NCBI GenBank assembly: GCA_023213315.1
Contig: JAKCPI010010606.1
Coordinates: 62,001 to 126,000 of the forward strand
DNA length: 64,000 bases
Direction: 5' to 3'
Source of the DNA: Euborellia annulipes
Lineage: Eukaryota; Arthropoda; Insecta; Dermaptera; Anisolabididae
Positions 12,806-39,850 of the stretch are shown here, piece by piece. The notes under the pieces are model-generated. The model was not told where the DNA came from. It did not search any database and worked only from the letters and a program-made list of their open reading frames with translations. Both the position numbers and the translations under genes were made by a program. Each line of letters begins with the position of its first letter. Position 1 is the first letter of the stretch.

Positions 12806-13148
12806 AGGAAGAGGGGATGCCAGCCAAACAAAATAGCCTCTATCAAATGAAAATCCCAATACAAGAAAACATTTCGGCTTTAATTAGATAATGCTATCAT
12901 CAGGTCTTATCAGAATATACATTTGAGACTTCGCTATATAATCTAATGAGCATACGTCACCTTATGTAGGTATATATTTTATATAAATTTGTATATGTTT
13001 ATATATAACAACTCCATTTGCAATAGTGTATACTTTGATATTGTCAATATTCTCATAAGAACTGATGATGGCATTATCTAAGTAAAGTCGAAACGTTTTC
13101 TTGTATTGGGATTTTCATTTATATCGTCTTTGGCTGACATCCTCTCTT
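12806..13148. mobile_element. Family J palindromic MITE
   Basis: Long imperfect palindrome. The left end reads GAGGGGATGCCAGCCAAA and the right end, on the minus strand, GAGAGGATGTCAGCCAAAGA. Inner arms share TGAAAATCCCAATACAAGAA. Each arm contains a CTGATGA...GAAA core pointing outward (12871-12903 minus, 13062-13095 plus). No coding content. Confidence 0.8.
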
Positions 13149-13314
13149 AGTAATAATTTATTCATTGAATAGACACTTCTCTCATCGACATATAGAGAGA
13201 CAGTATTGCGATCATGTCAAAAATCGAGATTTTTTTATTTATTTTTAATTATTCTCAACTTATCATCTCTTGACTAATTGAAACTATATGAAATATTAAA
13301 GCTTATTTAGCTAA

Positions 13315-13600
13315 ATATATAAGCTAATGTTTGTCTGTCTGTCTCTCTCGCTCTATTTGGACAATTTCCCTTTGGAATTTCGAAACCAAATTTTATATGC
13401 TTGATGAGGGCCTTCCAGGGATTACAGGAAAATTATTTTCGTCCCGGAATTCCCATAACTAGAAATTTATGTATTCTTTGTAATATTCTCTTTACAATTT
13501 TTTTATTTATGTTTAATATTTTAAAATAAAAAAAAATATATTCTCTCTTTTATTCGCCTTGAAAGTTTACAAATATTTATTAAAAGCAATAACTGGATAT
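13315..13600 (+). mobile_element. Helitron-like fragment, 5' part
   Basis: ATATATAAGCTAATGTTTGTCTGTC, read in parts, then CTCTATTTGG and TTATTTTCGTCCCGGAATT match the 15616 copy and the reverse of the 41.1-41.7 kb copy. The 3' terminal hairpin is not seen. Confidence 0.6.
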
Positions 13601-14124
13601 AAGGTGGGGGGAATTTATTGAAACTTCAAATCTTAAGAATATTTAAAACCTTTTCTAAAGATCTCAATTCCAATTTATAAATCAAAGAATGGATAAAAAA
13701 AAAAAAAAAAAAACATTCTCAGCAATAATATACTTTTCATTTTCGGAAAATTTTTCAAGGAAATATTCAAATTATTCTCAATAATAACAGAGTTGAAATT
13801 TTTATATAAAACGTATATAAAAAATCTTAAGAAATTTAACAAAAACTTTTTTTTACTTTTTTTCTTCAGAAACCTTCTTCCGACTTTAAGGATTGAATAA
13901 TAAATAGAAGAAAGAGGCACAAACAGCAAGACTAAGTTAATTTAAAATTTTTTTCTGATAATAAGGACGATAACAAAAAAAACATTAAAATTTTTATATA
14001 GAAAGACAATTAATAAAATAATATACTACTTTATATGTATTTTTACCAGGACCAGCTCATTATAGGGATTAGGCAATGTTTGTAAGAAGTATTGTGTTTA
14101 CAATAATTTTAATAAATCAATCTC
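13601..14124. other. AT-rich spacer
   Basis: Dominated by A and T runs, including 13690-13713. The minus-strand frame at 13675-13929 is a poly-Phe/Lys translation of such runs and not a gene. Confidence 0.45.
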
Positions 14125-14746
14125 TTAAGGGGGAGTGGACCTCTAAACGTACTTTAAAAAAAAAACGTCTATTATAAGGAATCTTTCAATTTGGTCTTTT
14201 TTTAAATGAATTAAATTTATAAGGTATTATTGGGACAGAAAATTATAATTTTTTTAATGACTTATTAAAAAATTATTGAAATTAATTTTTTTTTGTTATC
14301 AAGCAAATACAGAAAAACAAACTTACAATTTTTTTTTTAATTTAAAAATGAATTTATTTTAATTAATAATCACATATTAATTAAAAACAATTGAAAGTAA
14401 CCTTAGATGATTATTTAAAACTTAACTGTCAAATAGTTCAGCACTCTTGCAAAAGATGGCAGGCTAGTCCAACAGCCGGTATTATCAGTTCCCCTATTAG
14501 CCTATACTGAACCCATATTTATATATTTTTATGCTTTAATAAATGATACTATATAATACCATTTATAAAGTATTCATTGTTAAAAGATCAATGAAAATCA
14601 ACCAAATGCATTAGACTATTAGCTACCATTCTGACATCTCTTGGCAAATTTTCGTAATAGGTGGTTTTTTGGCTTACTTTTTAAGACACATAACGCCATC
14701 TTATCGGCAAAAACATGCGTAACAACTTCGCTCGTACTCCCCCTTA
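14125..14746. mobile_element. Family H element, copy 1
   Basis: Starts TTAAGGGGGAGTGGAC and ends GTACTCCCCCTTAG. The interior CAAATAGTTCAGCAC, AAAGATGGCAGGCTAGTC, CAACAGCCGG and ACACATAACGCCATCTTAT blocks are shared with copy 2 at 44815-45440. The only symmetrical part is the short TTAAGGGGGAGT end. No transposase frame, so it is non-autonomous. Confidence 0.75.
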
Positions 14747-15615
14747 GCAAGTCGAATGTACAAAAGTAGAGGTCGTTTGCACTTTTTTCCCATCCAATAG
14801 GGGGGAGTGATCAACACTTTTAGGAACATCCAGGGGCAACTTGTAAAAAAGAGCTAGATAAAATTTAAAGTAAAAATTAGAACTCCCTATTAGAGCCGGA
14901 ATTGGTTAAAAAAATTGAAGGAAAATAAATTTACGGTTGGGTTAAAAAATAAATTTTATAAACAAGAAATTTTCGCTACGAATTTTATCATGATCTTTTC
15001 ATAAATAATGATAGTTTCATTCGAAACCTTTTTATTTTTCACCCCGACTAGACATAATAATAAAGGGCTGTCCGCGTAAACACTGGACATCTGGCAACCT
15101 AAGATATCTAGTGATATGATTTATTATATTCGTGTTAAATTTATTATTTTAAATTTGACTATTTTTAAACAAGCATTATTCAGGAACTACTAATATAAAA
15201 TTCAAAATTGATTTCTAACTCTTGATTTATTCTTAAGTGATGCGAACAAGAATTTAAATCTCTTTCACCTCCAAACATTGTTCTTAGTAGTAAAATATTT
15301 TATAGGTTATAAAATATGCTAAGTAGACTATCTTCTTAATTAAATTTAATTAATTATTCCTCTATCTATTTGGCAACTTAATGAATTATTATTAGCACCT
15401 AAATAACTTTGGAAACACGGGAAGTCAAGAAACTTCCTTGAGATTAGCTCGAATATATAGGAATTTTATTAAAATTTCCTTTAGAGCCATTACTAAGTAA
15501 ATAATCCCATATCATTTTTGTATTAAAAGTTAATATACAATATGGCTTTAATACCCTCTCCGGAGAGTGATTGATATGTCCTCTATAACGTATATTACAA
15601 AATGTTATCAATATC
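14747..15615. other. AT-rich spacer
   Basis: Moderately GC-rich near 14760-14830 and 15040-15100, otherwise AT-rich. No recognised element. Confidence 0.35.
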
Positions 15616-16060
15616 TATATATATACCAGTATAATTCGCTAATGTCCGTCTGTCTCGCTCTATTTGGGAAACTTTCCATTGGAATTTCGAAATCCAACTT
15701 TATATACTTAAAGAGGACCGTCTAGGGATTAAAGGAAAATTATTTTCGTCCCGAAATTTCTATAACTTTTTGGGTTATTAATTGCTGAAGTTACCTAGGA
15801 AATGTATGAAGATATTAGTAATGAAAAGCAATTTATGTATTCTTTGCAATATTAGTAAATGTTTTTTTTTTTTTTATTTATCTTTATTCATTTAAAATTA
15901 AAAAAAACATATTCTCTCTTGTATTCTAATAATATTTCTATTTTCTGGTATATTTACTTTTATTTCTTTTAAAACATGAAGACCTTTAAGTATTCTTTGC
16001 AATTGTCACTGTCGTGATGTTAGAAATGAGAAGGCATTCACGTATTCTTTCCATTGTCGT
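15616..16060 (+). mobile_element. Helitron-like element, 5' end and interior
   Basis: Begins ATCTATATATATACC (5' TC after an A, as Helitrons do), then ATAATTCGCTAATGTCCGTC, TTATTTTCGTCCCGAAATT and ATTCTTTGCAATTGTCAC blocks. It shares these with the complete copy at 41102-41732. The 3' hairpin with CTAG is not recognisable here, so the right limit is approximate. Confidence 0.65.
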
Positions 16061-17237
16061 GAACAATATATCCCGAGACGAGGCCAGGGTCTATCGTGGG
16101 TGTATTTATAATTATAACAAACAAAATCTTTTTGATTGTGATAGCTGAATATTTTTTGAAATTCCCATTAAAAATTAATGAGTTCATTTCTTTATTGGAA
16201 AGTAAAAATGAACTAAAATTGTAATGTACTAGGTATATAGGCTGCATCTAATATATCAATTCGATAGCTCAAACTTCGTAATTTGTAAAACTTAGAGGGA
16301 GTATAAATAACCATCTGACAGATAGAGACATATTCTGCTGAGTTTGACATGTCGCCAGGGTAGGAAAACTTTCTAACCCTCTAACTTTTAGCAGGTGTGT
16401 CTTCTACACTTCTCTACCCTTGGCATCGTGTCATGTTCGTAGCCATCTCCCATTTTTAAGGGTTGCTCTCTGTCTTTGTAAATTAGTTAATACCGTGTTG
16501 CTGTCAAGAGCAAAAGTGTTCCTTCTCCCTTTGATTCGTTTTATGCTAATTCAATTCGATGGACAGCTTTTATTAATAATGCTGCCACACTTGCAAAATT
16601 ATAACTTAACTAAATTTTTTATAATCAATTCAAACACTCAATTGAATATGTTTTCCTTTTATTCTAAAAGGAAAATAAAAAAGTTTAGATTTGATTTCAG
16701 TATGTTTGATTAAAAAAGAAAAAAAAAACCGCAGAATACAAGTGTAATGGTGGATTCTTAATCCCAAAATATAACAACCTCTTCATTAAAAATTCGACAA
16801 ACGAATATCTCTAATCGTTGATTAATTTTTATTGAAATTCTTTAATAACGATAATAATCTATATATTATAATATTTTTCCAATAATTTTAATCTTATATT
16901 AATTTTCTCCGACTTGAATTCTTAAATTCTGTACTTTTATCAAAGAATCATCTCTCTTCGTCATCATTATACTCCAATTATTATAAGAATAAAACAATCG
17001 AATATCATATCGCATTTTCAAATATTGATATTTTTTTTTCTTCCCCATTTAATTATTTTCCTCTAGTCAATGTTAAATTCAAATTTGTTTTTCCTTTCGA
17101 CTGAGATTTTCCATTTTTTTTTTGTTTTTATTTATTCTAGTAAGGTTAGTAGAGAATACTCCTTTATCGGAAAATATTTGCTAAATAAAAATCTACTTGG
17201 TTTAATAAATGTCAAAAAAAGATTTTAATTTTTCCAG
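16061..17237. other. AT-rich spacer
   Basis: A mixed-composition stretch (16300-16580) covers a 97-codon open frame on the plus strand (16420-16713). It lacks recognisable motifs and passes into AT-rich sequence. I do not call it a gene. Confidence 0.35.
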
Positions 17238-17302
17238 GTCATTGCTCGGGCGCAAACACTTATCCCGAATCAATAGATGAAGATTTCTTCAAATCTCGAT
17301 AG
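17238..17302 (+). CDS. Candidate terminal exon, unknown
   Basis: A good splice acceptor (TTTTAATTTTTCCAG ending at 17237) opens a 20-codon frame, phase 2, of normal-looking composition (CSGANTYPESIDEDFFKSR) that ends at TAG 17300-17302. The following 17303-17480 is clearly GC-richer than the surroundings and could be 3' untranslated sequence. The exon is too short to recognise and may be chance. Confidence 0.2.
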
Positions 17303-17879
17303 CACGCATATTAGAAAGGGTCCTAAATTGGGACGAAAAAATTCTACGGATTAACCCTCCAAATACTTATCAATCCCTATAGAGAGAAGTTTACCGCCCG
17401 TAGGGGGAACTGGTAGAGGACGGAGAGAGCGGGATTAAGGAGCCAATTTTATGGGCGGTCGGTTATCGGCATCCACGGAAAATAAAACCACCTCCTTGTA
17501 ATTTCTCTTCATTCATATACAAAAATTGATTCAGAATTATAATTAGATTCAGAATATTCTTATTTTATTTGTTCAACTAACCGTATTAAAATTTTTGCTT
17601 CTTTCAATTTTATATCATTATGCATTTTGTTTTATTATTTTTATAATTTTATTTAAAATTAATAATAACGATAAGGGGGTCGCCCATGTGAGCACGTGCA
17701 CGGTAACCACGAGATACCCGCATTGGCATTTCTGTTCTTTATCCTATCGCCATCATGTCATTATAAATTTTACCTCTTGATTAATTGATTTAGACTTCAG
17801 GATTATTGTTATTATAAATAAAAGACATTTTTTTTTTGTCATAAATCGCAGTTTATTCTAGCTAATAATAATAATAATA

Positions 17880-18470
17880 CAAAAAGTGTTATTAATTAAA
17901 TTAAAATACAACATTTCGGCAGCTAATTCTGCTGTTGTCATCAGGTAGATACATTCACTTCCAAAAATGAACACTAACCAGGGAATAAACTAACTGAGGA
18001 TTTGGTGTTATTTATATGCGTGGCTAACTTCGTCTCGCTTACATTCGTAACCAACTTCACTTCATTCACATATTTTGCTCACTTCACATTACCAACACAA
18101 ATGAATCTTAGACTATTAAATTTGACAAATTTAATTACTCTTTCGTGCCTTTCTGTAACACACACAAACAAACATACACACAAACACCATTATATACAGT
18201 ATATACTACAAAAACAATTTCTAATAATTCTAGAAATGAGACTTCCATATTCTGTTGAGGATAAGACTGTCATCCATCATGTTTCCTGGATGTTTTTCAA
18301 TTTCGAGGGCCTCTTTTACTAGTCTCTTAAACCAATTTCCTTCTGCAGCTAAGACTCTTTTTATATTTCACTGTATTTTGTGACCCTTTGTTAAAGCATG
18401 CTCAGCCACTGCACTTTTTTAGGTGTGTTTGAGCCCTTTGATGTTCCTCCAATCTTGTTTTGATACTACA
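17880..18470 (-). pseudogene. Penelope-like retroelement 3' end
   Basis: On the minus strand 18236-18470 encodes the C-terminal part of the GIY-YIG endonuclease region typical of Penelope-like retroelements: KTRLEEHQRA, then after one frameshift AVAEHALTKGHKIQ, an in-frame stop replacing an expected Trp, NIKRVLAAEGNWFKRLVKEA, LEIEKHPGNMMDDS and a terminal stop after WKSHF. The conserved EH, GH and VKEAL positions are kept. About 290 bp downstream, at 17911-17944 on the minus strand, is CTGATGA, a hairpin and CGAAAT, the hammerhead-like motif that the literature places in the terminal repeats of Penelope elements. The reverse transcriptase part is missing and a family D fragment abuts the upstream side. 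Confidence 0.8.
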
Positions 18471-18520
18471 TAAGACACACAAAATTTGGTGTACTGTGTG
18501 GTCAGTCACACCAGATATTT
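18471..18520 (-). mobile_element. Family D 3' hairpin fragment (D9)
   Basis: Only the hairpin remains: CACACAAAATTTGGTGTACT, then GTGGTCAGTCACACCAGATA. It adjoins the truncated upstream end of the Penelope remnant. Confidence 0.6.
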
Positions 18521-19174
18521 TTACTAATGAGATTTTCTTTCTTCCTATCAACAACAAAAACCTAATTAAATTTAATTACTCATATAATATCAGAAGATTC
18601 ATCAACATCATGCAATTCCTCCAACATTCACCCTTCAATTTGCATAAATTTTCTTCCTTATCATGCATTTTATATAATTTAAAACATAGTCAACATTAAT
18701 TTCCTTTCTTTACAAAAAATTCGATATTATATTATTATATGAATGGATATTAGAGTAAGTGAATTAAGAATGGCTTAGATATTGATAAAAGCTTTGAAAT
18801 AAAAGAAAAATGAAGGCGCCGTAAAAACGACCGAAAGCATAGCAGCTGACTGATTTAAATATTTCTAATTCATTTTCTTGGTTTACGACAGTTTTATGAT
18901 GCTTTTTTAAACCACGGGGATTTTTTTTCACTCTTATGTCTATAAGATGAAGAATAAAATGAAATAAATTAAAAATTAATAAAAATGATCCATGTCTCTT
19001 TGGTATTCGAACCAATTTTAAAGAACCGGAAGAAATTTTATTTTTAAATTTTTTATTAATTTACTTGTAATTAATTTTTTACTTCGAATGTTCTAGCTGC
19101 GAGTTTTACAATTTTTTCCTAGAAAAATTTTTCTATAACCTGGAAATTGAGTGTCGTTTTAAACTTATTGATGG
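18521..19174. other. AT-rich spacer
   Basis: Frames at 18460-18699 (plus) and 18764-19015 (minus) are AT-driven, with no domain. No repeat ends are recognised. Confidence 0.4.
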
Positions 19175-19176
19175 TA

Positions 19177-19419
19177 CAGTCTGCGCCATAAATGCCTGAT
19201 GTGCTCTAGAGTGGAGCCTATGAGCTTAGGGAACCAAAATGCTCGAGAGTGGCGCTTTGAGCTTAGACAACCCAAATGCTTATCTATGTTGTCTTAAAAG
19301 TAACTTTTCCCTTTCAGTTCTATTAAAAAAGATGATATATTTATTTTAAAAATATTTGTTTGGTTGCCTAAGCTCAAGGCTCGTCTCTCGAGCACATCAG
19401 GCACTTGTAGCCCCCACTG
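19177..19419. mobile_element. Family L MITE, copy 1 (TA TSD)
   Basis: Flanked by TA on both sides (19175-19176, 19420-19421). Ends CAGTCTGCGCCATAAATGCC and, on the minus strand, CAGTGGGGGCTACAAGTGCC are followed by TGATGTGCTC and a GAGCTTAGGCAACC-like inner repeat. CAGT ends plus a TA duplication place it with Tc1/mariner-type non-autonomous elements. The centre is AT-rich, non-coding. Confidence 0.85.
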
Positions 19420-19421
19420 TA

Positions 19422-20822
19422 CTGATATTTATTGGGCTCTGTCTGATATATCTTGAGTTGCAACACACCAGAAAGTTATGTGATGTTCGTTTCTCACACC
19501 AAGTTTTTGATTATATCTTTATAAATGGGAATTTATGTATTTTATAATCCTCTTTCTGCTGATTCAACATTGAGATTGTTTTGTCCATTTAAATATTAAT
19601 TTTAACAAGCTACATTCAAGTTTTTTTTTTTTTTAATCAAATATTAAATTTTTTTTTGCTAGTGGAAAAAAAAAATATTCAATCACTTTATAAGAGAAAT
19701 AAAAGTCTTTTTTTATTTGCTTGTAAAATATAATTAAAAACTGAAATAGATTGATTCTCTCTTCATTTTTTTTTAAATTGTTTATTTTTCGAAAGCTCAT
19801 CAAATTTGTATTTTTTTTTTTTCTTTTGGTGATTTATCCGTTTATTTTCGCCTATGTCTTAATTTCAGATTTTGTTTTGGCCCTTAATCATCGTTTTCTC
19901 CCTTTGCAATTTTTCGAAAACCCATTCTCAATTTATTTCCCTTCTTTATCCTATTATGTATATTAAAAAAAAAAAAAACTTGTTTTCAAACTTTCTTTTT
20001 TAAATTTAACATACATTTTGCCAATATCATATATATAAAAAAAAGATATCTAATTATAATGAAATTTATTATAGAATTTATACATTAGCCTCACACTCTA
20101 TAATAAATTAATTCTTCTTCTTAAAAAATTTTGATTTAAATTTTTTTGATTTTCAAAAATATGAATAAAATTTGTTTCATTTCGTTATACTCTATTCGAA
20201 TTTACATATTTTGACGTATAAATCTGCATACAAATTATATGCAAATATAACAAATTTTTTATTGAAACTTTTATATCAATACATAATATGTTAATTTAAA
20301 TACCAATGCAGTTAGTATTAATTTTTAATTTAATGTTGTAGACATCTGACATAAGTAGTCAAATAGAATTAAAAAACTTTCCGGCGGTTCCCATCCCTCT
20401 CTCAAAATAATTATGATTTATTCTAAATTTTGATAATTTATATGATCAAAAAAGTGTGGGCCGTTCAAAAAACGGTTATTTACTTTCAAATTTTCAATTA
20501 AAATCTCCTCTTTCTTTAGGTAAAAGAGGAAAAAATCGAAACAGTGACTCGTTGAATAAACAGGCGTCGGGTTATTAATCCTGGGATTGATCGATGGGCC
20601 CCCAAAGGGCCGATTTACGTCAACATGTTTACCCCAAATAGTCTTGTCTTAAAGCACCTCCCATCCAGCTTTTGTTTACTTGGACTTTTGTTTTCAAAAT
20701 AGTGTCGACTTTTACTTTGAAGTTTTTCCAATTTGATAAACGAATAATTTGGTAATACTCTACAAACTAACTATATACTAAAATACATTTAATTTGTTTA
20801 TTAAAGTTTTTGTGGTTTGAAT
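19422..20822. other. AT-rich spacer
   Basis: T-runs and hydrophobic pseudo-frames only (for example 19751-19966). A GC-richer patch at 20560-20680 is not assigned. Confidence 0.35.
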
Positions 20823-21050
20823 TATTATTATTAGGAGAATTTTTAATTATAGACCACATTTTTGTATTAATTATTTATTATAAATTATATATATATATTA
20901 TATATTATAAATTATATTATCAAGTACTGTGCACTTGATAACGGCTGCAGAATAAGCAGTCGAAAAGTTGTACAGTATTTATTTTTTTAATAAGTAATAC
21001 AAAAATGTGGTCTATAATTAAAAATTCCCCTAATAATACATTTAATTTCC
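20823..21050. mobile_element. Family C MITE, short palindromic copy (C2)
   Basis: Both ends are present: AGGAGAATTTTTAATTATAG on the left and CTATAATTAAAAATTCCCCT on the right. The middle of the left arm is replaced by an AT palindrome, and only the right arm keeps GGCTGCAGAATAAGCAGTCG. Confidence 0.85.
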
Positions 21051-22606
21051 TTTTTAGATTTTATGTACCTTATTCAAACTCCCTCCGTAGCACCGTCACT
21101 GTAAATGCTTGACTTAATGATCAGTTATAAGTCATTTAAAAAGAAATTGTAAAATATAAAACAAGTGGGACCTCGTAGCCGGCAAGTAATTTTCTGTCTA
21201 TATTATCATGAGAGATAGCTAATCATAAAAATGCATTAATTTTCAATTAATTTCCAATATGTATTAAGCGATATTATTAATTATAATAATAGTTAGTTAT
21301 CTGACGAAGTGAGGTTATGTTATAACTTATAATAGGCCAGGATAAATATCAATTTTTATGTAGTTGGCCAGTTGACCGCAAGGGCGTATTGTATCATTTA
21401 TAATTTCACACATGACATAGAATTTGATCCTAATTTCACTTGCATTTCTATTTCCCCGATTGTTTATTTTTATTTAATATTAATATTTCAATAAAAAAGA
21501 TTTTAGATGAATATCAATAATTAATACATTTTTAAAAATCCAACTATATTAATGCATTTTTATGTTTAGCTGTCTCTCATGATAATATAGACACTAAATT
21601 AATACAATAGGTAATATCAGTCTTCTTCTATTAAAGATTCTTTATAGTTTAAAGATTGGAATTTTCACCAAAATATTTTAACGAACCAATACTTTGAAGA
21701 ACGTTCATTCAACCATACATAAATTTATTTAACGGAAGGTTTAAAGGACTAAGAGCATTTAACGGATCTCTAAATACGTTCTTGGAAACCACCGCTACTA
21801 TTTCTGCTGCTGACTTCATGTTTCTAATCACTTAAGAACCCAAATGTCTTGAGTGTGTATTTTAGAAAATTTGTTATTATTAATCTAACATAATATTAAT
21901 GATTTATTAGATAAAATATATAATTAATTCTAATATACTGACATAGCACTTAGTAGAGAGTAATAAGGAAAATAATTATCTTTTGACTAAACTCTTGTTA
22001 TTAACAATATACCTTATAATTTATACTTATTTACATATTAATTCTCACTTGAATAAATTAGTCTATTTGCTTTTTATAGTAATTTCTTTTAGTATAAAAT
22101 TTATATAAAAATTTCTAATATTTAATAACAAATATCTTGAAACTAAGGGCGTGGCTACAAAATCTCCCTTGGGAGCAGGAAGATAAATTTATTCTTATGT
22201 TTTTTTTTTTATTTTATTACAACAGAATGGGAGGTTTATAATTAATTAAAATAAACAATGTTCTCCGTAAGAATAAAGTTATTATTTCTAATTAGGTGAA
22301 GTCAATGATAAATGAAAGCTCAATAATTGTTTTGTTACTGATCTCGTAATGAGAGAGATAATCATTTGACATTTGCGGAGTTTGATGGATAAGCATGAAT
22401 ACTGGTCTATATACTTATTTTCATATTGGAGTTTACATACATTATACGTGTGTGTATCAGTGGATAAACTGAAACATGTGTATCTAATACTATTTGATCA
22501 TTCAAGCTCTATAATAAATTTCAATTTTGTTTTCCTGGTACATTTATATGAATGTCTATAAATATTCTCTTGGTTTTTGAATAAATATAACTAATTACCG
22601 TAGACA
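21051..22606. other. AT-rich spacer
   Basis: No supported element. 21170-21240 and 21520-21600 share an inverted word (AGAGATAGCTAATCATAAAA, TAGCTGTCTCTCATGATAAT in part), suggesting a decayed 430-bp palindromic element (about 21190-21590). Confidence 0.3.
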
Positions 22607-22828: not shown

Positions 22829-22890
22829 TTTTTACTTATCTATCCATCTTTATGATAAAATATTCTAATTTTATTATAGTTCCGGGATGG

Positions 22891-22906
22891 CCGAGCTGGA
22901 GCTCGG
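22891..22906. repeat. GC hairpin CCGAGCT-GG-AGCTCGG, copy 1
   Basis: Perfect 7-bp stem in AT-rich context, followed by a T-run. The wider word GATGGCCGAGCTGG also resembles a tRNA A box. A second copy with the same context lies at 23132-23147. Confidence 0.6.
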
Positions 22907-26326: not shown

Positions 26327-26353
26327 CTGAAGATGACGTATTAACGTTGAAAT
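26327..26353 (+). other. Hammerhead-like core CTGAAGA / hairpin / GAAA
   Basis: CTGAAGA, then ACGT-ATTA-ACGT style hairpin, then GAAAT. It starts 27 bp after family G copy 1 and belongs to no recognised element here. See the finding on the recurring core. Catalytic activity is unproven. Confidence 0.35.
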
Positions 26354-29562: not shown

Positions 29563-29605
29563 AAAATCTTATGTGCATTGTAGCACACAACTTCTTATCT
29601 GTAAT

Positions 29606-30486: not shown

Positions 30487-30856
30487 CTACCGATAAAATT
30501 TTGATTTTTTTAATAATTCATTATTCTTTTCGATTTTCCTAATGAATGCTACCCCCACCCCCACCCCTGGTGATATTTGTAGCTTCGCACATTTGTAAAC
30601 TTGATAGCAACCTAAATAGACACAAACTCCAAACTCTGCTGAAAATTGAACTGACATTACTATCCTTTCATTGTCTACAATAAAAGCGGACGTGACTGTC
30701 ACACTTAAATTGGTCTAATGGTTCATCAAAATAGATGGGTCAAAGTCAAAACATTTCATTGCACCAATACAACCAAATTAATCTGATTTCACTCTTTTTT
30801 TTTTCTTCAGTTTTACAAATTAAAGTTAACAGACTTATCAATATTTACTATTACCT
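30487..30856. other. Spacer
   Basis: A CCCCCAC-type run at 30550-30567. The minus-strand frame 30487-30702 (71 codons, M-T-V-T-S-A-F start) is of mixed composition but ends in Lys-rich AT sequence and has no recognised motif. Confidence 0.3.
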
Positions 30857-30862
30857 TATCCC

Positions 30863-30936
30863 TGCAATGGATAGCACCCCTATGCCCCTGAAAGGCTGGA
30901 GATCCTGGGTTCGATTTCCGGGGGCCATGGGATGTT
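30863..30936 (+). tRNA. Degenerate tRNA-like sequence
   Basis: TGCAATGGATAGCACC resembles an A box and GGGTTCGATTTCCGGGGGCC a T-arm with acceptor strand; the spacing is tRNA-like. The 5' acceptor strand and anticodon stem do not pair cleanly, so this is a tRNA pseudogene or the head of a SINE rather than a working tRNA. Confidence 0.35.
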
Positions 30937-31135
30937 TGGCCTCGCCAATAAATAACACTCACAGCTTTGTTGGATATATATCTATATGACTTAACTATAG
31001 TTAAGTCCTAAAAGAATCGAGATGTTTTGAATACTAATATCTAATTCAAATAAAAAAATCTCGAAAATATTTAACTATTTTTTCTAAGTTCTTTAAAAAG
31101 TATTGATATATTAACTTAAGTTTTTTACTAAAACG

Positions 31136-31332
31136 TGTTACTTTACTGATGTAGTATTTCAGAATTTTTTCCAATCGTAGCTCAGCGCCATCTATGAAAC
31201 TCAAGTAGTCAATTATGGAACTAAATTGCTATGGTCAACAGAAAAAATCTGGTGTGACAGTACACAACTTTCGATTGCCGAAGATAAGTTGTGTGTTGTG
31301 CTTAAAACAAGTTGCAACAAATTTTTCTGAAT
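31136..31332 (+). mobile_element. Family D 3' end, alternative body (D15)
   Basis: TTTACTGATGTAGTATTTCAGA and the GGAACTAAATTGCTATGG segment match the alternative 3' body seen at 52.7 kb. It is followed by TCTGGTGTGACAGTACACAA and a decayed second hairpin arm. Confidence 0.7.
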
Positions 31333-31565
31333 TCTAATGATACTTGCTCGCACACGCTATGACTATTGGAAATAAACAGTGAGGGTCGCGGAGTTGCGTG
31401 AGTGCGTTAAGAATCAAAAGAGGGGAAGGGATGAACAGATCCCGCACTCCCACTCCCACCACTTGATTTTTTTTTCTATCCCCTCTCTCTAACCCATTGA
31501 GACTAGTTGGTTGCCTAACTAAAAGGCGTTCCCATATTTTTATTTTCCATTTTAATTCTCTATCT

Positions 31566-31780
31566 CAGAGGTTCCCAAACTTTTTTGTCCACTTGTCATG
31601 TTTTTTGATTTTGGATAGACCCCCTATTAAAAATGCGATTTTAATACCCTTAATTGAATATTTAATTTTTAACGCTTGCGGTGTGGGTTTCAAGTGAAAC
31701 CTTTGTTCTTATTTGAATAATTTTCTGAAAATTTTCAGTTAAACGCCTATGATCCGAAAAAAAAGTTTCACTTGCATCGT
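31566..31780 (+). mobile_element. hAT-like terminal fragment
   Basis: CAGAGGTTCCCAAACTTTTT is the widely conserved terminal sequence of one hAT group (CAGNGGTTCYCAAAC type), followed by the usual GACCCCC-like word at 31618. The opposite end was not found, so the right limit is a guess. Confidence 0.45.
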
Positions 31781-31901
31781 GGTTTCATAAAACCACACAA
31801 TGATTTTTTTTTAGTTTTCTTAATGATTTAAAATAAATTTAATATTCCATTTTTTACTTCATCACTTGAAGCAAATATTAATTTATTTTCTTTTGTTCCA
31901 G

Positions 31902-31946
31902 GTAAGCGACTTCAACATCTTTCAAATGGTTTTTCCCATGCTCTAT
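31902..31946 (+). CDS. Candidate 45-nt microexon or recursive splice point
   Basis: TTTATTTTCTTTTGTTCCAG (ending 31901) is a strong acceptor. It is followed directly by GTAAGC, so the junction also reads as a perfect CAG/GTAAGC donor, the layout of a recursive splice site. A second donor, TAT/GTAAGT, starts at 31947. The 45 nt between are open in frame 1 (VSDFNIFQMVFPMLY) and frame 3. Length divisible by three, a strong polypyrimidine tract and a strong donor are all consistent with a coding microexon in a long intron of an unseen gene on the plus strand. Protein unknown. Confidence 0.35.
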
Positions 31947-33322
31947 GTAAGTTTATACAATTTTTTCATTCTTTTGTGAAATGTATAAAAAAAAAAAAAA
32001 TAAAAAATGAATTTGATTGATTAAAGAATTAGTGCTTGATAAAAAAAAAATACTATCTAATGCTAATCAAATATTCCTATTAAAAATCAAGAAAAGTTTT
32101 TTTTCTGAGTCCATCCTTCCGGAATTTGTCCTGATTGTACGTGCAGATACTATTGATTTCTTTTAATTTAAATTCTCTCATATTCAATTATTACCGTTTT
32201 CAAAAACATCGTTTTTTTACAATCACAATAATCACGCGAATGACGAGCTCGAGTTACCAGAGCCAAGGCTCCGCTTCCCCCTCCCTCACTTCATCACTAA
32301 AATATATTTTTTTTTTGAAATACAAAAGTAATTGGTAGAAAATTGTTTTTCAATACTCGAGTTGAGTTTGATAAAATAAATAATTTTAAGAAGAAGCAAT
32401 TCATTTCGAAACTCTTCTTTACTATATTATTTATTGTCTTATTTTTGGACCATTTGATCCACTTTCGCTCGTTGTAATTAAACTCAAATCAAGTGGAATT
32501 AATTTTAACTTTGATCGATTTCATTTCATTCTTCTTTATAAAATAACATTTTTTTATTGATTCATTCACTCATCTATTAAATTCAATGAAGCATCATTGC
32601 TTTACAACTGGAGAAATGAAATTTATTTCAATCTGAATCTTAAAGGAAATAAAATTTCTGACAAACAATTCAATTTAAATAAGAAAGAACAAAAAAAAAA
32701 AATTAATATTTTTAGATTTCTTTATTTTATTTAAATAAAAAAAAAAAATAAATTACGATAATTATTTCTACATCAAATATGTAAATAATCCATTTAGAGA
32801 CGGCACACGTACGACAAAATAATATTCTTTGAGATCTCACGTCTAAAGTTCGAAATTTAATCACTCTTTTTTTTCCTAAGGGACAAAACTGAAATTTTTT
32901 TTGCAAAAAAAAAAGTTTCATTGTCGAAACGAATTTATTTTCTCTTGCGATTATTCGATTTGCAGCAAGTTTTGGTCAAAGTATTATTTTATAAAATTTT
33001 TTTATTGTGAAAGAAAAAAAAAAAAACTAAGTTCTGCTAACAAGAGAGAAGGGATTTCGTTGTAACTTAAGGGAGAAATTCGAGGACAGTTGAAAAAATT
33101 TGACAATTGAAATTTTATCCTTAGGCAAGGGAGTTTCGACTGTTTCTTGTTATAGACTACATTTTCGTGATGGTCGTATTAACTATTTTCAAATCAAATT
33201 TAAAGTTCTTTTATTTTTTGCTCGATACATACACATGTGCAAAGAAAGAAGAATCATCATTGCAAACAACACTAAAGAGCTTGTTTCTTAAACTATGGTC
33301 AATTAACCATTGGCTAAGCGAC
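31947..33322. other. AT-rich spacer
   Basis: Homopolymer-rich. Small frames at 32135-32338, 32727-32921 and 33100-33379 lack recognisable features. Confidence 0.4.
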
Positions 33323-33325
33323 TTA

Positions 33326-34636
33326 GGGCCGGTTGCTTCACTTATAGTCAGTCAACTAGCAAATTTATCCAACCTATAAAAATAAAAATAAATAAATAAT
33401 AAGTAATCTAAATAATGAACAAGAACACGATTAACCTTCGAGCTAAAAAAACGAGTTTTTTCACATATAATTATCTGAAGAGATTTGTGAAGTTAGCAAC
33501 TTAATAAAGACATAACTTATAAAAATTATTAAAAATAAAAATTGAAATTAATTTAAATAATTATTAAAAATTAAAATAATTAATTAAAGATAATTAATTT
33601 TTTTTTACCAAAATTTAAAAATTTCCAAAAAAAAAAAGCATTTTAATTGCCAATTGTTCCAAACTTCACATTGGCTTTGTCAAGCTTGTGTTTCTAATTT
33701 CACTTCTTATCTTCACATCTAGTTAAACCTTATTAACCTCGACCTGTGTTCTTATTTAATCATATGATTAGCTTAACTAGATTTGAAAATACTCAAAATT
33801 CTTAACCAACCAGCTTATCCGAGGGATATGATAGCAGGTTAATTAGAAGGGGAAAATTTCCAAAAAAATAAATAAGGTTTAATAAAGGCTTCTTATTCCA
33901 ATTTGCCAATCGTTCCAAACTTCACATTGAATTTGACATATCGACACTGGCTTGATGCTTGTGTCAGATTTCTGTTTCTAATATCACCCCTTTGTTAATC
34001 GTTTTACAGAACAATGGGCATTTGCCAACTAACTTCGGCCAGGGATCTTATTTAATCATTTGATTAGCATAACTAGACGTGAAAATACTCGAGCTAAGAC
34101 CCTAAGGCTACTAAGGAGTGAAATTAGGAACACAAGCCTTGTTTATTTATTTTTTTAGACATTTTTAAATTTTTTTTTTTAAATTAATTAGTTTTAATCA
34201 ATTATTTTAATTTTTAATATTTATTTTAATTAATTTTAATAATTTTTATAATTGATGCCTTTATTAAGCTAACTTCACAAAACTTTCCTTACACCTCAGA
34301 TAACTAATTTTATGTGAAAAACTCATTTTTTTAATTTTAACTCGAAGGAAAAGCGTGTTATAGGCATATTTATCACGAATGTGTTTATTAAGGCTTTTGT
34401 GCTTTGTATTATTATTATTATTATTAAGGGAGTAGACCACATTTGTATTAATTATTTATTAAAAATATAAATACTGTACAATGTTTCGACTGCGCTGAGA
34501 ATTCGAAACGTTGTACAGTATTTGTATTTTTAATAAATAATACAAAAATTTAAGCATGTTGTTTATTAATAATATATCGATGATTTGATATTCCTCGGAT
34601 AAGTTTGCTAGTTGACTATAAGTGAAGCAACCAGTC
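33326..34636. mobile_element. Family A element, complete, with nested C copy
   Basis: TIRs GGGCCGGTTGCTTCACTTAT (left) and GACTGGTTGCTTCACTTATA (right, minus strand), continuing GTCAACTAGCAAA on both sides. Flanked by TTA (33323-33325, 34637-34639), which with the GGGCC-type end suggests a PIF/Harbinger-like element. Arms are long and AT-rich; the middle (33640-34110) contains repeated words (CCAAACTTCACATTG twice). A family C element is inserted in the right arm. No transposase seen. Confidence 0.7.
34426..34550. mobile_element. Family C MITE nested in A (C4)
   Basis: A collapsed palindrome keeping only the outer arms: TAAAAATATAAATACTGTAC, AATGTTTCGACTGC, then CGAAACGTTGTACAGTATTT. All inner sequence is deleted. 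Confidence 0.8.
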
Positions 34637-34686
34637 TTAAAATCCCTTTTATTACTAAATCTTATTATTAACTAATCATTTTTTTT

Positions 34687-34926
34687 GGAGTCAGGAGGTA
34701 TAAAATCAGCGTTGTCGAACACCTTTACACTTTTATTTTATGCAGACGTTGGTAACCCTAACAGTTGCCATCTTCAGTGCCAAAGAAAGTATTTTAAGGT
34801 AGACAGGGACACGTTAAAAAACTTTCATTGGCACTGAAGATGGCAACCGTTAGGGTTACCGAAACGTCTGCATAAAATAAAAGTGTAAAGGTGTTCGACA
34901 ACGCTGGTTTTATTCCTCCTGACTCC
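34687..34926. mobile_element. Family M palindromic element
   Basis: A 240-bp near-perfect palindrome. The left starts GGAGTCAGGAGGTATAAAAT, the right ends TTTTATTCCTCCTGACTCC. Arms share GTGTAAAGGTGTTCGACAAC and GCACTGAAGATGGCAAC. The right arm has an intact CTGAAGA...GAAACGT core (34834-34867); the left copy has lost the GAAA block. Confidence 0.85.
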
Positions 34927-35530
34927 AATCTCACATACCCCGCATACAATTTAATCATTTTTTTATTGAAAAGAAAATATAACAAAGATTTTTAATTCTT
35001 TTAATAATAAAATGATGAGATGTGATATTTTGTATTGAAGATAGTCATTTTTTTTTAAAAGGCCAATTCGCTTAACCAAAAAGTGCCATGGATGAAGAAA
35101 CCTGCCTTTTAATCAACTCACAACACATCAAAACAATTGACTTCGATTGTTCCAATTCTTTTTTTTGTTTTATACAGTTTATTAATTTAATTTTTTTATA
35201 AAGAGAAAATTTTTTAATTAAATTTGTATATGATTTCTTGTATGCTGAGAAGGGACTGAAAAATAATAACGATGATGAAATTTTTTCTGTCTTATAGAGA
35301 GATCTCTTTATTTCTTCCAATTCCTAACAATTTTTTTTTTATTTATTTAATTTTTTTTTTTTTTTTTTTTTTTTCATTATTATTCGCTCATATTTTTTGA
35401 TCACTGAAAAATGTCTTTTGTAAGGCCATGACCTTTTATTTCAATTTTACAACATTTTTTTTTTTTTAAATTAAATGAAGGAATGAATTGAAAAGGCCCT
35501 TTGAAGATTCTTTGTTCTCGTCAAACACCA
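34927..35530. other. AT-rich spacer
   Basis: Long T-runs (35331-35374). The minus frame 35072-35320 is Lys/Ser-rich, AT-driven and not credible. Confidence 0.4.
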
Positions 35531-35580
35531 AGGGCGTAGCTGGAGGGTAGTGACAATCGGGGACTCATATCATTAGCAAA
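35531..35580 (+). mobile_element. Family K-like terminal fragment
   Basis: AAGGGCGTAGCTGGAGGG matches the GGCGTAGCCAGG-type end seen at family K, without a matching right end. Confidence 0.35.
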
Positions 35581-35703
35581 TTTTTCATTACTTTCGTATA
35601 TAATTTCATATATATATATATAAAAGGTAAATTCTTTTAATAACCAAATTGTGAATAAAATATCGTCTCATCTTTGTCAATTTTTTTGCTTACCACCCAA
35701 ATA

Positions 35704-35842
35704 CTTTTTTTTTTATTTAAAATCATTTTCGGCATCTGAGCCTATTCAGACCTCTATATCCAATTAAAATTCTCGCCCGGGACGGGATGCCGAATCCTTA
35801 ACCTTTGACACCAGAAGCGAATGCTCTACCTTTGAGCTTTGA
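35704..35842 (-). mobile_element. tRNA-derived SINE, minus strand
   Basis: Minus strand: AAAGGTAGAGCATTCGC (A-box region), GGATTCGGCATCCC (B-box region), a body with TTGGATATAGAGGTCTGAAT and the family tail CAGATGCCGAAAATG followed by an A/T-rich end. Same tail family as 1527 and 52264. Confidence 0.7.
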
Positions 35843-36815
35843 AAAAAAAAAATATAAATTTTCAATCGTTTTTCATATACTTGAATTTTAATATACCCAC
35901 TTTGTGAAATCAAATTCCTAAACTAGTCTATTAAGGAAAAAAGAATATGAATCACAATTAAGTAGCTTAAAAAATATGCTATTCAAAGTAAAAAGTCGAG
36001 ATGGTAAAGGAGTCATACATTTGAAGGGAAGAAACTAATTGTTCGAGTTCACATCTCTAGAGGGACATTTTTTGTTAACTAGTCTATGAAATTTGTCATA
36101 AACCGGTTTATGAAACTTAATAAATTGGTTTATGAAAGTTCATTTTGAACTTTTCATATACCCGAATGTAAAATTTATAAACACTTTGTGTAACAGACTT
36201 CATATACTTGTTTATGAATATCCCTTGATAATTATTAACAGTGTAGGTCATCCAAGTACTTGATTTATAAAAATTCTTAATAATATAAGCGAAGTTTTAA
36301 TTTTTTTTTTTTTTTTTAACGTTAATTAAAACATTCATTTCTTTTGTTTTCTTATTTTATCAGAAACATTTCATTAATAAAATTTAATTAACAAGTTAAT
36401 TTAAAACATATAATCAATATATAAAAAAAAAAAATCATAACAAAAGGAAGCAAGTATAGAGAAAAAAAAAATAATATCAAAGAGAATTTCCTCTCCAAAT
36501 AATTTCAACATTTTATTTGATTTTATTATGATTAAAAATTAAAACAAAAGGTACTTTCATACTTACTTTGATCTCCTGAACATTTTTGATCATTAGCACC
36601 CTAAAATGCAGTGAAGAGAAAAGAAGAGCTCATTAAAAATAAATAAATTAATTAATTTAAAAAAATGTCTTTCAATTTTTTTTTTTACAAAAGACCTTTT
36701 TTTAAATGAAATTGTTATTCAGAAAATTTTAGTTTTACTGACCGATATACACAATTTGTCATATTTCCACTTGTTTATTTAAGATATATATTAGTGTGTG
36801 TCTGTCACCTATTAT
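35843..36815. other. AT-rich spacer with TTTATGAAA words
   Basis: 36070-36215 repeats GGTTTATGAAA or its complement several times around the palindrome CATAAACCGGTTTATG. No TIR or TSD is found. The remainder is AT-rich. Confidence 0.35.
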
Positions 36816-37172
36816 TATTATTATGGGAGTTTTAAATTATAGACAACAATTTGCATTAATTATTTATTAAAAAAATATAAGTACTGTGAACGTTTAACTA
36901 CTTATTTGCAGTCGTTTAAGTACTGTGCACTTGCTCCGATTCATTCGAACTGACCTCAAAGGGTCACCTACATGAAGTTAGTAAAATTTTATTGAAGTTA
37001 GCAATATATACAAACATCCCCATGAAGTTAGACACCATCATCACACCAAAATAAAATAAGCAAGTGCACAGTACTTGAAAACGACAGCAGAATAAGTAGT
37101 CGAAACGTTGTATATTTTTAATAAATAATTAATACAAAATGTGATCTATAATTAAAAACTCTCATAATGACA
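36816..37172. mobile_element. Family C MITE, both arms (C5)
   Basis: Left end ATGGGAGTTTTAAATTATAG, right end ATAATTAAAAACTCTCATAA. Inner words TGTGCACTTGCTCCG and AAGTGCACAGTACTTGAAAA mirror each other; the GACGTCAGCGCCATCT core is mostly lost. Confidence 0.85.
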
Positions 37173-37567
37173 TTATCCAGAGCTCAGGAAAAATAATCGA
37201 GTTCCCAAATCTCATAATGGAGAGGCTGAACAAATTTTTTGAAATTCCAGAATTATGAAAAATCAAAAACAATTATAATAAAAAACTAATTAAATCTCTC
37301 AATTGAAAAATAATCAAGATTGTTAATTACAATTTCTTCTTTTTTTTCATTTGATCTTGATAGGAAAATATAGATACAATAGTTTATAGTTTTATGAAAT
37401 TATTATTAATATTAATATTGATAATTTTTTTAAGACAAGTGAGGGGGCGTATATATTTTTTATGAACCAGATATTTAGATCTCAATAATTCTGAAAAATT
37501 GCGGGACATGATAAAAAAAAAAAAATGCAAGGATTCGTCGCAAGTGTGCCGCGGGGTTAGTAGATAA
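37173..37567. other. AT-rich spacer
   Basis: No element recognised. The word GAACCAGATATTTA at about 37464 recurs at about 38841 inside family B. Confidence 0.4.
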
Positions 37568-39167
37568 TAGGGGTATTCATGATCTTGAGTTTTGTCGTAA
37601 ATGTCCTAAATCGTAAATAGTTTAGCACAAAAGTTAACGAATGGACCAAAAATAAATTTGTCCTATGTCGTATTTGATGACTATCGGTGAATTCGAACAA
37701 CATTCATAACCTACTAAAAGTCTTTTTCTTTTTAAAATTGTATCACATATCTCATTCATTTTTATTTTATAAATAAATAAGAGAAACAAACAAAACAACA
37801 CACTAAACACTTGAAAACAAAACACAAACTGCACAAACACTTTTTAGGTTAGAAAAACTTTGACATTTCTAATGGCGGAAATCGATTTACAACATACGAC
37901 ACCGATATCAAGAGACCTATGACAGTCGTATGTACTATTTAGCAATACGAGAGGTAAATGTCTTAAACTATGGTCAATTAACCATTGGCTAAGCGACTTA
38001 GGTTGCTTCACTTATAGTCAGTCAACTAGCAAATTTATCCAACCTATAAAAATAAAAATAAATAAATAATAAGTAATCTAAATAATGAACAAGAACACGA
38101 TTAGCCTTCGAGCTAAAAAAACGAGTTTTTTCACATATAATTATCTGAAGAGATTTGTGAAGTTAGCAACTTAATAAAGACATAACTTATAAAAATTATT
38201 AAAAATAAAAATTGAAATTAATTTAAATAATTATTAAAAATTAAAATAATTAATTAAAGATAATTAATTTTTTTACCAAAATTTAAAATTTCCAAAAAAA
38301 GCATTTTAATTGCCAATTGTTCCAAACTTCACATTGGCTTTGTCAAGCTTGTGTTTCTAATTTCACTTCTTATCTTCACATCTAGTTAAACCTTATTAAC
38401 CTCGACCTGTGTTCTTATTTAATCATATGATTAGCTTAACTAGATTTGAAAATACTCAAAATTCTTAACCAACTAGCTTATCCGAGGGATAGCAGGTTAA
38501 TTAGAAGTGGAAACTTTCCAAAAAAAAAAATAAATAAGGTTTAATAAAGGCTTCGTATTCCAATTTACCAATCGTTCCAAACTTCACATTGAATTTGACA
38601 TATCGACACTGGCTTGATGCTTGTGTCAGATTTCTGTTTCTAATATCACCCCTTTGTTAATCGTTTTACAGAACAATGGGCATTTGCCAACTAACTTCGG
38701 CCAGGGATCTTATTTAATCATTTGATTAGCATAACTAGACGTGAAAATACTCGAGCTAAGACCCTTAAGGCTACTAAGGAGTGAAATTAGGAACACAAGC
38801 CTTGTTTATTTATTTTTTTAGACATTTTTAAATTTTTTTTTGAACCAGATATTTAATTTTAAATCACATATCTCATTCATTTTTATTTTTAAATAAATAA
38901 ATAAGAGAAACAAACAAAATAACACACTAAACACTTGAAAACAAAACACAAACTGCACAAACACTTTTTAGGTTAGAAAAACTTTGACATTTCTAATGGC
39001 GGAAATCGATTTACAACATACGACACCGATATCAAGACGACCTATGGCCGTCGTATGTACTATTTAGCAATACGAGAGGTAAATGTCGTATATCGTATAC
39101 TCAAATAAGACATAGGAGACTTTTAAGACGATAGGACGTCGTATATACAAGATCATGAATACCCCTA
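37568..39167. mobile_element. Family B element containing a copy of A
   Basis: Ends TAGGGGTATTCATGATCTTG and, on the minus strand, TTAGGGGTATTCATGATCTT. The interior holds a 230-bp segment twice (37742-37971 and 38865-39092: CACATATCTCATTC through CAATACGAGAGGTAAATGTC) with a truncated A between. The right part continues to ACGACGTCCTATCG-type sequence (minus). No transposase. Confidence 0.75.
37970..38840. mobile_element. Family A, right-truncated copy inside B
   Basis: About 870 bp nearly identical to 33290-34150, including about 38 bp that lie outside the A TIR in the first copy (CTTAAACTATGGTCAATTAA). The right arm is missing. Sharing of flanking DNA shows it was copied from that locus, or a sister of it, rather than moved as a clean transposon. 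Confidence 0.85.
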
Positions 39168-39719
39168 ATATCGCCAAACTAAATCGTTTTTTTTTTTCTC
39201 TTTCAAATAAAAAAAAAAAAAATATGGATAAATATAGAAACTCAATTCATTGATTAAAAAAAAAAAGGTAAATGATAACATTTAAACAATTTAATCAAGT
39301 GCTCTCACTGTCCTCTGCCATTTAATTTAATAACATTATGTTAAACTCTACAATAAAAAAATCTTTTAAAAATACAATAAATTATTATACGTATATGAAT
39401 TAAGTCACTAAAGGCTGGATAACAAATTGATGTTTCAAGGGTCATCGGAGGGATTCGAATCTTGTTCATCCTGTCAATCAATAAAACTGTAGATCTTACA
39501 TTTATTTATATAATAGGAAATGATTTAAATACATTTTTGATGATAAAATCATGTAAGCCTTACTGGACAGTTTTCACATGAGTGATACAATAAAGGAAAT
39601 TTATTAATTGTTTTAAACTTTCTTGATTATTATTATTAGAATATTGGGAATTAATGACTCTGTGATAATTTAGATGTAGGCAGCCAACAAAGAATAAAAA
39701 CATTATTAAAATATCGTTG
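39168..39719. other. AT-rich spacer
   Basis: 39420-39500 has a weak GATTCGAATC palindrome but no tRNA-like fold. Nothing else supported. Confidence 0.4.
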
Positions 39720-39850
39720 ACGTTTCGAGAACGCATCGTTCCCATCTTCAGAACGATAAAGTCTTTTCATCTTGGCTAGTCCTGATGTTTCGGGCCCATT
39801 TGACAAAAAATACAGCCCAGGCACGTACTGCAATTCTCGTATACAATTAA
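39720..39850 (-). mobile_element. Retroelement terminal fragment with ribozyme-like core
   Basis: Minus strand: CTGAAGATGGGAACGATGCG, TTCTCGAAACGTCAACGAT, with an inner GAACG-ATG-CGTTC hairpin and an outer ATCGTT/AACGAT pair. Upstream lies GGGCCCGAAACATCAGG. This combination resembles the terminal repeats of Penelope-like elements, but no reverse transcriptase or GIY-YIG sequence is seen beside it, so the assignment is tentative. Open frames on this strand (39560-39854) are short. Confidence 0.4.

What the first reader, a model, noticed from the sequence alone, without database searches (positions are those of the whole stretch)
12871..39751. Hammerhead-like core recurs in unrelated elements
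CTGA(A/T)GA, a short hairpin, then a GAAA block is seen at 12871-12903 (minus) and 13062-13095 (plus) in J, 17911-17944 (minus) in the Penelope remnant, 26327-26353, 34834-34867 in M, and 39720-39751 (minus). Family C carries a degenerate form (CTTGATAAC or CTTGAAAAC, GCTGC/GCAGT hairpin, CGAAACGTTG). CUGANGA and GAAA are the conserved hammerhead ribozyme bases, and hammerheads are established in Penelope-like elements. That palindromic DNA elements share the core suggests either capture of a ribozyme or repeated origin of MITEs from Penelope terminal repeats. The GAAACGT end is also conserved beyond the core.
Basis: partly seen in the sequence, partly recalled or inferred. Interest (0 to 1): 0.75.

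Follow-up and report, generated by a model that had tools for sequence, protein, structure and literature searches.

The report
Hammerhead-like motifs ending palindromic Penelope elements
Short palindromic repeats in this large genome look like shrunken relatives of Penelope retrotransposons whose ends carry an RNA motif built like a self-cutting hammerhead ribozyme; the motif is a known kind, but its abundance and its back-to-back placement in small palindromes are worth following up.

Summary
The motif is real at 5 of the 6 listed sites and in family C; 26327-26353 is chance-level. It is a hammerhead core of the reduced type reported for Penelope-like elements (PLEs): CUGANGA, one extra nucleotide, helix II, GAAACGU, then a GUH site. 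In 40 sequence clusters from this genome helices I and II covary and position 17 is never G. CTGAWGATG..CGAAACGT occurs 31,085 times in the 903-Mb assembly, 0 times reversed. Rfam models find no hammerhead in the window or in the 15 loci tried.

The palindromes are not DNA MITEs. They are head-to-head PLE terminal repeats: in 16 of 23 pairs a tail lies on one side only, and 12 of 17 scored pairs have 10-15 bp target-site duplications. Window M (13 bp) and C (14 bp) have them too. Pair L078 encloses a GIY-YIG domain; a longer M copy, L067, encloses a related endonuclease end.

Family C is not simply degenerate: its core has the paired change C3-G8 to U3-A8.

Self-cleavage is untested. Neighbouring copies are mostly inverted, and the full palindrome is predicted to mask the ribozyme.

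The parts
39711..39759 (-). Hammerhead motif, helix I 7 bp, helix II 7 bp, GUC site
   Evidence: E 2.2e-10; training row; MFE forms both helices, but also pairs the extra U with G12
39648..39669 (-). Probable PLE-type tail 3' of that single terminal repeat (ATTATCACAGAGTCATTAATTC), resembling the tail of genome locus L061
   Evidence: compared by eye
13054..13105 (+). Hammerhead motif of element J, right arm
   Evidence: training row
12860..12911 (-). Hammerhead motif of element J, left arm (partly decayed)
34687..34951 (.). Element M: palindromic non-autonomous PLE-type element, tail on the right
   Evidence: bounds read by eye
34673..34685 (.). Target-site duplication of M, left copy (TAATCATTTTTTT)
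34952..34964 (.). Target-site duplication of M, right copy
34826..34876 (+). Hammerhead motif of M, right arm
34737..34785 (-). Hammerhead motif of M, left arm, two bases of GAAA lost
17902..17952 (-). Hammerhead motif downstream of the Penelope coding remnant
   Evidence: training row
18233..18412 (-). Penelope endonuclease C-terminal remnant ending at a stop codon about 290 nt before the hammerhead motif
   Evidence: 42% over 38 aa to L078 endonuclease, E 8e-4
57586..58070 (.). Element C: palindromic PLE-type element
   Evidence: bounds read by eye
57572..57585 (.). Target-site duplication of C, left copy (AAAATAAAATTATT)
58071..58084 (.). Target-site duplication of C, right copy
57634..57684 (-). 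U3-A8 hammerhead motif of C, left arm
57905..57955 (+). U3-A8 hammerhead motif of C, right arm
37067..37117 (+). C copy, U3-A8 core
47452..47502 (-). C copy, U3-A8 core
50242..50292 (+). C copy, U3-A8 core
20927..20977 (+). C copy, U3-A8 core, changed after GAAA
9413..9443 (-). C copy, partial, mutated core

Best explanation
The motif is the reduced type I hammerhead of PLE terminal repeats (pLTRs). M and C, and probably J, are non-autonomous PLE-type retroelements: two pLTRs head to head, their hammerheads pointing outwards, with little between, copied in trans by a PLE reverse transcriptase/GIY-YIG protein. Shown: hammerhead architecture by covariation across clusters; inverted pairs; one-sided tail; target-site duplications; endonuclease remains inside two longer pairs, one an M copy. 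Inferred: the tail marks where reverse transcription starts; the inverted arm arises by self-priming or template jumping; transcripts of a single arm cut themselves after GUH, as an intermolecular dimer through the self-complementary ACGU that replaces stem III or with the PLE protein's help; in a full palindromic transcript the opposite arm pairs with and silences the ribozyme. The confidence given is for the identity (hammerhead architecture in PLE-type elements); for actual cleavage I would say 0.6.
For:: 40 clusters, selected on the core only: helix I positions 1.1-1.4 paired in 35, 35, 32, 26 of 40 (128/160; shuffles mean 69.0, sd 6.4, max 90 of 2000); helix II with exactly one extra nucleotide 38/40, 35/40, 32/40, 31/39; position 17 is C 29, T 10, A 1, G 0. 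(39 of those rows): covariation score 0.671 against 0.202 (sd 0.025), 0/500 shuffles; slid registers at most 0.220; 15576+15509 exact cores, reversed control 0+0. (18 neighbour pairs within 2 kb among the first 100 listed places): -+ 15, +- 2, ++ 1, -- 0. (23 unique inverted pairs): tail motif on one side 16, both 0, neither 7; background 2.5% per 60-mer. (17 pairs with a one-sided tail): TSD at least 8 bp in 13, against 9.9% of 272 crossed flanks. PF01541 GIY-YIG 7.5e-6 (26.6 bits, cut-off 22.6) inside pair L078; the M-family pair L067 encloses a peptide 52% identical over 42 residues to L078's endonuclease; short M copy L013 keeps 76 bp (93%) of L067 sequence, most of it beyond the arm.
Against: No cleavage was measured. 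Of 8 window motif stretches folded alone, only 39720(-) has an MFE with both helices, and there the extra U pairs with G12. The measure 'pairs with a change on both sides' does not exceed shuffles (9 against 8.7). Some of the 40 clusters look related to each other, so they are not 40 independent origins. Families with broken cores also multiplied: C3 with a non-G8 base, 1654+1482 matches, control 30+39 (39 of the first 100 have A8 and a helix II). J shows no TSD or tail. 7 of 23 pairs lack the tail motif; 4 of 17 have a TSD under 8 bp. Only 30 of the first 100 listed places lie in -+ pairs within 2 kb. The L067 peptide matched no Pfam family above cut-off. No intact PLE and no RT was retrieved: those genome searches did not complete.
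Confidence: 0.85

Rival explanations
1. The palindromes are DNA-transposon MITEs whose inverted repeats contain a DNA hairpin; the hammerhead likeness is convergent.
For: Long inverted repeats and very high copy number.
Against: A hairpin explains helix II but not helix I covariation or the absence of G at 17. A tail on one side only and TSDs of varying length and endonuclease remains between the arms are not MITE features.
Confidence: 0.06
2. DNA transposons captured a PLE hammerhead.
For: Many pairs have only 62-340 bp between the motifs, too little for a gene.
Against: The M family runs from short copies to L067 with endonuclease remains, same pLTR and tail.
Confidence: 0.03
3. Active tandem retrozyme-like units giving circular RNA.
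For: Small non-autonomous type I hammerhead elements exist in animals (PMC7229834, passages).
Against: Neighbouring motifs are mostly inverted (15 -+ against 1 ++ and 0 --).
Confidence: 0.03
4. Fossil only (compatible with the PLE identity): the core is inherited from PLEs and plays no part in spreading the palindromes.
For: Core-mutant families multiplied; whole M and C transcripts are predicted to bury the right-arm ribozyme (31 of 34 and 33 of 34 nt paired with the other arm); PLE insertion in vitro did not need the ribozyme (PMC11167929, passages).
Against: Covariation across clusters and the coupled U3-A8 change suggest past selection on the fold.
Confidence: 0.3

Closest known systems
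Minimal type I hammerheads of Penelope-like elements (Cervera and de la Pena 2014; Lunse et al. 2017)
   Same: Core, lack of stem III, location in PLE terminal repeats (as told in PMC7761336 and PMC6155905, passages)
   Different: Here, among the places listed, mostly opposite-strand pairs rather than tandem; an extra nucleotide after A9 as the best helix II register across the 40 clusters; U3-A8 families. The two papers are not held, so whether they report these is unknown to me.
Penelope elements with inverted pLTRs and optional 31-bp tail (Adineta vaga, PMC3846280, passages)
   Same: Head-to-head pLTRs, tail at the 3' end of one of them, TSD of 8-10 bp, pLTRs sufficient for trans-mobilisation
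   Different: Here reduced to short palindromes in many copies; 12 of 17 scored TSDs are 10-15 bp
Poseidon PAc element (PMC11167929, passages)
   Same: Hammerhead at the pLTR, reverse transcription starting in an AC-rich stem-loop mirrored in a genomic tail, AT-rich targets
   Different: Full-length, tandem; its ribozyme needed protein in vitro
Metazoan retrozymes (PMC7229834, passages)
   Same: Non-autonomous, type I hammerhead
   Different: Tandem repeats and circular RNA; here inverted

Membership tests
Hammerhead ribozyme | CUGANGA and GAAA core | tested here: met
   selected for, so only its recurrence in differing clusters is evidence
Hammerhead ribozyme | Helix I with covariation | tested here: met
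Hammerhead ribozyme | Helix II with covariation | tested here: met
   one extra nucleotide before it
Hammerhead ribozyme | Helix III | tested here: not met
   Between GAA and position 17 stand only A15.1 C G U16.1, so no hairpin; self-complementary ACGU could pair between molecules. This lack is the mark of the PLE subtype (PMC7761336 passages)
Hammerhead ribozyme | NUH cleavage triplet | tested here: met
   C 29, T 10, A 1, G 0 of 40
Hammerhead ribozyme | Match to Rfam hammerhead models | tested here: not met
   window; 15 of 80 loci
Hammerhead ribozyme | Self-cleavage | not testable with these tools
   needs transcripts
Penelope-like element | RT plus GIY-YIG protein encoded | tested here: inconclusive
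   GIY-YIG in L078, related peptides in L067 and the window remnant; RT was not searched for with an answer; most pairs are too short to encode it
Penelope-like element | Inverted or direct pLTRs | tested here: met
Penelope-like element | Short tail at one side | tested here: met
   16 of 23 pairs
Penelope-like element | Variable TSD | tested here: met
   13 of 17 at least 8 bp; M and C; none for J
DNA-transposon MITE | Fixed-length TSD and symmetric ends | tested here: not met
Retrozyme | Tandem hammerhead units | tested here: not met
   1 ++ and 0 -- of 18 neighbour pairs

The most novel reading that the evidence does not exclude
The dispersed 'orphan' minimal hammerheads of animal genomes are largely the ends, or left-over ends, of a separate class of compact palindromic retroelements that ride on PLE machinery. 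The inverted layout puts a ribozyme on whichever strand is transcribed and, through pairing of the arms, makes its activity conditional on single-arm transcripts or PLE protein; core drift can proceed through coupled C3-G8 to U3-A8 swaps. Against it: only 30 of the first 100 places lie in close -+ pairs, and one genome was seen.
Probability: 0.3. Interest if true: 0.65.

Novelty: new variant of a known kind. Interest (0 to 1): 0.5.

Why it matters
A review calls most animal minimal hammerheads dispersed motifs and their role in PLEs a mystery (PMC7761336, passages). In this genome at least a part of them (30 of the first 100 listed places) are ends of definable PLE-type insertions, many with tail and target-site duplication, so they can be annotated, dated and tested. 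The inverted layout sits badly with the statement that dimeric cleavage in eukaryotes needs tandem motifs (PMC6466107, passages). Dozens of families in one genome, a few with natural core changes, make a ready series for testing which core pairs are tolerated.

Tried and rejected
Rejected: 26327-26353 as a hammerhead (E=0.46), although it passed the strict descriptor. ATGAAGA 'A3' cores: the two commonest were a family with one base inserted between C3 and U4 and a register artefact (CTGATGA-AGAGTGC..). Canonical hammerheads without the extra base, tested with one fixed spacing, CTGATGAGN12CGAAAC: 7 matches against 3 in the control. Rfam matches at high E-values were miRNA-type hairpin and other look-alikes. 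A TSD for J: no shared word of 8 or more. AATAAA within 40 nt 3' of the motif, 14 of 40 against 11.5% background, is only suggestive.

Not obtained: intact PLE copies, genome-wide counts of U3-A8 cores, a covariance-model scan of the genome, host identity. Paper searches whose listings showed no palindromic hammerhead PLE derivatives: (of the papers listed, passages or one section of nine were read); the two key papers are not held.
Full report
Check of the observation. The quoted strings are all at the stated places. The form CTGANGA..CGAAAYG occurs 5 times in the window against a mean of 0.03 in 60 Markov-1 simulations, max 1. A stricter descriptor in the same call, with uninterrupted helices, passes only 39751(-) and 26327(+), against a mean of 0.18 and a maximum of 2, so most window copies have interrupted stems. 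Rfam finds no hammerhead in the window at gathering scores or at E up to 10, nor in 15 of the 80 genome loci. I take the missing stem III to be the reason; this was not tested.

Genome context. The window lies in a 903-Mb assembly of 25,949 contigs. CTGAWGATGN{8,26}CGAAACGT has 15,576 forward and 15,509 reverse exact matches; the reversed pattern has none. The core without the extra base, in one fixed-spacing test, has 7 against 3 in the control.

Is it a hammerhead? From loci L001-L080 and the window I took every CTGANGA..CGAAAYGT hit (102, 75 unique), with no demand on stems, grouped them into 40 clusters by the variable parts, and used the first member of each. Some clusters resemble each other (for example those of L001 and L060), so they are not 40 separate origins. 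Helix I: 35, 35, 32 and 26 of 40 paired at 1.1-1.4, sum 128 of 160 against 69.0 (sd 6.4, max 90) in 2000 shuffles; slid registers give less. Helix II is in register when one nucleotide (T 31, A 7, C 2) follows A9: 38/40, 35/40, 32/40, 31/39, 27/39; five pairs 164 of 200 against 120.8 (max 139). The C of the first pair was part of the pattern, so that pair is half forced. Position 17 is C 29, T 10, A 1, G 0, as the NUH rule demands and though it was free in the search. On 39 of these rows (L034, with a very short helix II, left out) the named structure gives 79.7% paired cells against 52.3 (sd 2.0), covariation score 0.671 against 0.202 (sd 0.025), 0 of 500 shuffles reaching either, and at most 0.220 when slid; one measure, pairs with a change on both sides, does not exceed the shuffles, 9 against 8.7. 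Relatedness among elements makes the shuffles lenient; the slid control keeps relatedness.

Folding of single window motifs. Of 8 stretches folded, only 39720(-) has an MFE with both helices, and in it the extra U pairs with G12; the others fold otherwise or only in part.

Model search. A covariance model from the 39 rows recovers J (both arms), M (both arms), the Penelope site, 39711 and family C in the window, and puts 26319 at E=0.46 and an unassigned site, 8329(+), at 0.19. Three of the window hits were training rows.

What the palindromes are. Among the first 100 listed genome places, 18 neighbour pairs lie within 2 kb: -+ 15, +- 2, ++ 1, -- 0. The motif thus points outwards from both ends of an inverted repeat; 70 of the 100 places are in no such -+ pair by the exact pattern. 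In 23 unique inverted pairs (window J and C included; window M is not, because its left motif lacks two core bases) the arms run on for 25-97 nt past the motif; 16 have an AC-rich tail motif (CAGCCA and like) on one side, none on both, 7 on neither; background 2.5% per 60-mer. The motif list was drawn up by looking at such pairs, so the one-sidedness is better evidence than the count. For 17 pairs with a one-sided tail (one gained by also allowing CGGCCA) the flank beyond the other arm recurs after the tail, with a few bases of play at the boundary: lengths 0, 7, 7, 7, 8, 10, 11, 11, 12, 12, 12, 13, 13, 14, 14, 15, 15; mean 10.6 against 4.4 (max 6.4) with flanks exchanged; 13 of 17 reach 8 bp against 9.9% of 272 crossed combinations. 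In the window M has TAATCATTTTTTT and C has AAAATAAAATTATT on both sides; their tails were read by eye. J shows neither TSD nor tail.

Link to Penelope. In the window the motif lies about 290 nt after the stop of a Penelope endonuclease remnant. Inverted pair L078 encloses a GIY-YIG domain (PF01541, 7.5e-6, 26.6 bits against a cut-off of 22.6). The M-family pair L067 has 201-bp arms at 99.5% and encloses a peptide 52% identical over 42 residues to that endonuclease, though it matches no Pfam family above cut-off. The short M copy L013 shares 76 bp (93%) with L067, most of it beyond the arm. M is therefore most simply an internally deleted PLE derivative. [quoted passage not shown] reverse transcription starting in an AC-rich stem-loop that is mirrored in the genomic tail (PMC11167929, passages).

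Family C and the core. C reads UUGA(U/A)AA: with stem I in register (GUAC/GUAC) this is C3 to U together with G8 to A, the tertiary pair of the core. A second family with a different helix II (TTGAAAA-T-GGCTCC..) does the same. In the first 100 non-C3 matches (genome total 11,203+11,871; control 239+264), 21 are U3-A8 and 11 U3-G8 with a helix II under a loose rule. With C3, non-G8 matches total 3,136 (control 69), of which 39 of the first 100 are A8 with a helix II under a stricter rule, against at least 31,085 with C3 and G8 (a narrower pattern). A8 thus goes with U3, but the sample is dominated by two families, the rules differ, and C3-A8 families also multiplied. Natural C3-G8 to U3-A8 covariation is already known (PMC3088659, section 8).

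Mechanism. Shown: architecture, inverted pairs, tail, TSD, PLE coding remains. Inferred: trans-mobilisation by PLE protein; the tail as start of reverse transcription; the inverted arm from self-priming or template jumping; cleavage. Stem III is replaced by ACGU, which could pair between two molecules; two copies of the 39720 arm co-fold at -33.9 against -27.6 kcal/mol for two monomers, but the predicted co-fold is not shown to be an active dimer. Dimeric hammerheads in eukaryotes are said to need tandem motifs (PMC6466107, passages), which the pairs listed here mostly lack, so a dimer in trans or protein help (as for PAc) is the likelier route. In whole M and C transcripts 31 of 34 and 33 of 34 ribozyme bases pair with the other arm, so activity there should be low.

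Comparison and novelty. The ribozyme is the known PLE kind. One- or two-nucleotide insertions next to CUGANGA occur in known alignments (PMC10085705, passages). What I did not find in the listings of the held library is abundant compact palindromic PLE derivatives as carriers of dispersed minimal hammerheads; the two most relevant papers were not held, so this is a weak negative.

Noticed in passing
L078:350-1361; also L015, L043, L048, L079, L080: A hammerhead family (helix II GGTCGCATAGTCGACC and like) with one base apparently inserted between C3 and U4 multiplied and encloses a GIY-YIG domain in L078.
   Followed up: partly
genome places: Families with C3 and a non-G8 base (for example CTGATAAAGGTCGTGATTGGAGACC, five of the first 100 places) also multiplied, so core integrity is not required for every amplification.
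   Followed up: partly
window:1-300 and 61351-61650: Direct duplication at 97% identity.
   Followed up: no
window:33331-33604 and 38001-38274: 274-bp direct repeat with 100% identity, 4.7 kb apart.
   Followed up: no
window:29600-29871: 26-bp tandem repeat rich in ATCGATT.
   Followed up: no
L024, L029, L042 (long open stretches): Stretches that look like C2H2 zinc-finger coding sequence (by eye, no family search) close to the hammerhead repeats.
   Followed up: no
L059, minus strand: 276-residue open stretch with a ligand-gated channel domain (PF00060, 1e-8); an ionotropic receptor of an arthropod-like host is a guess from memory.
   Followed up: partly
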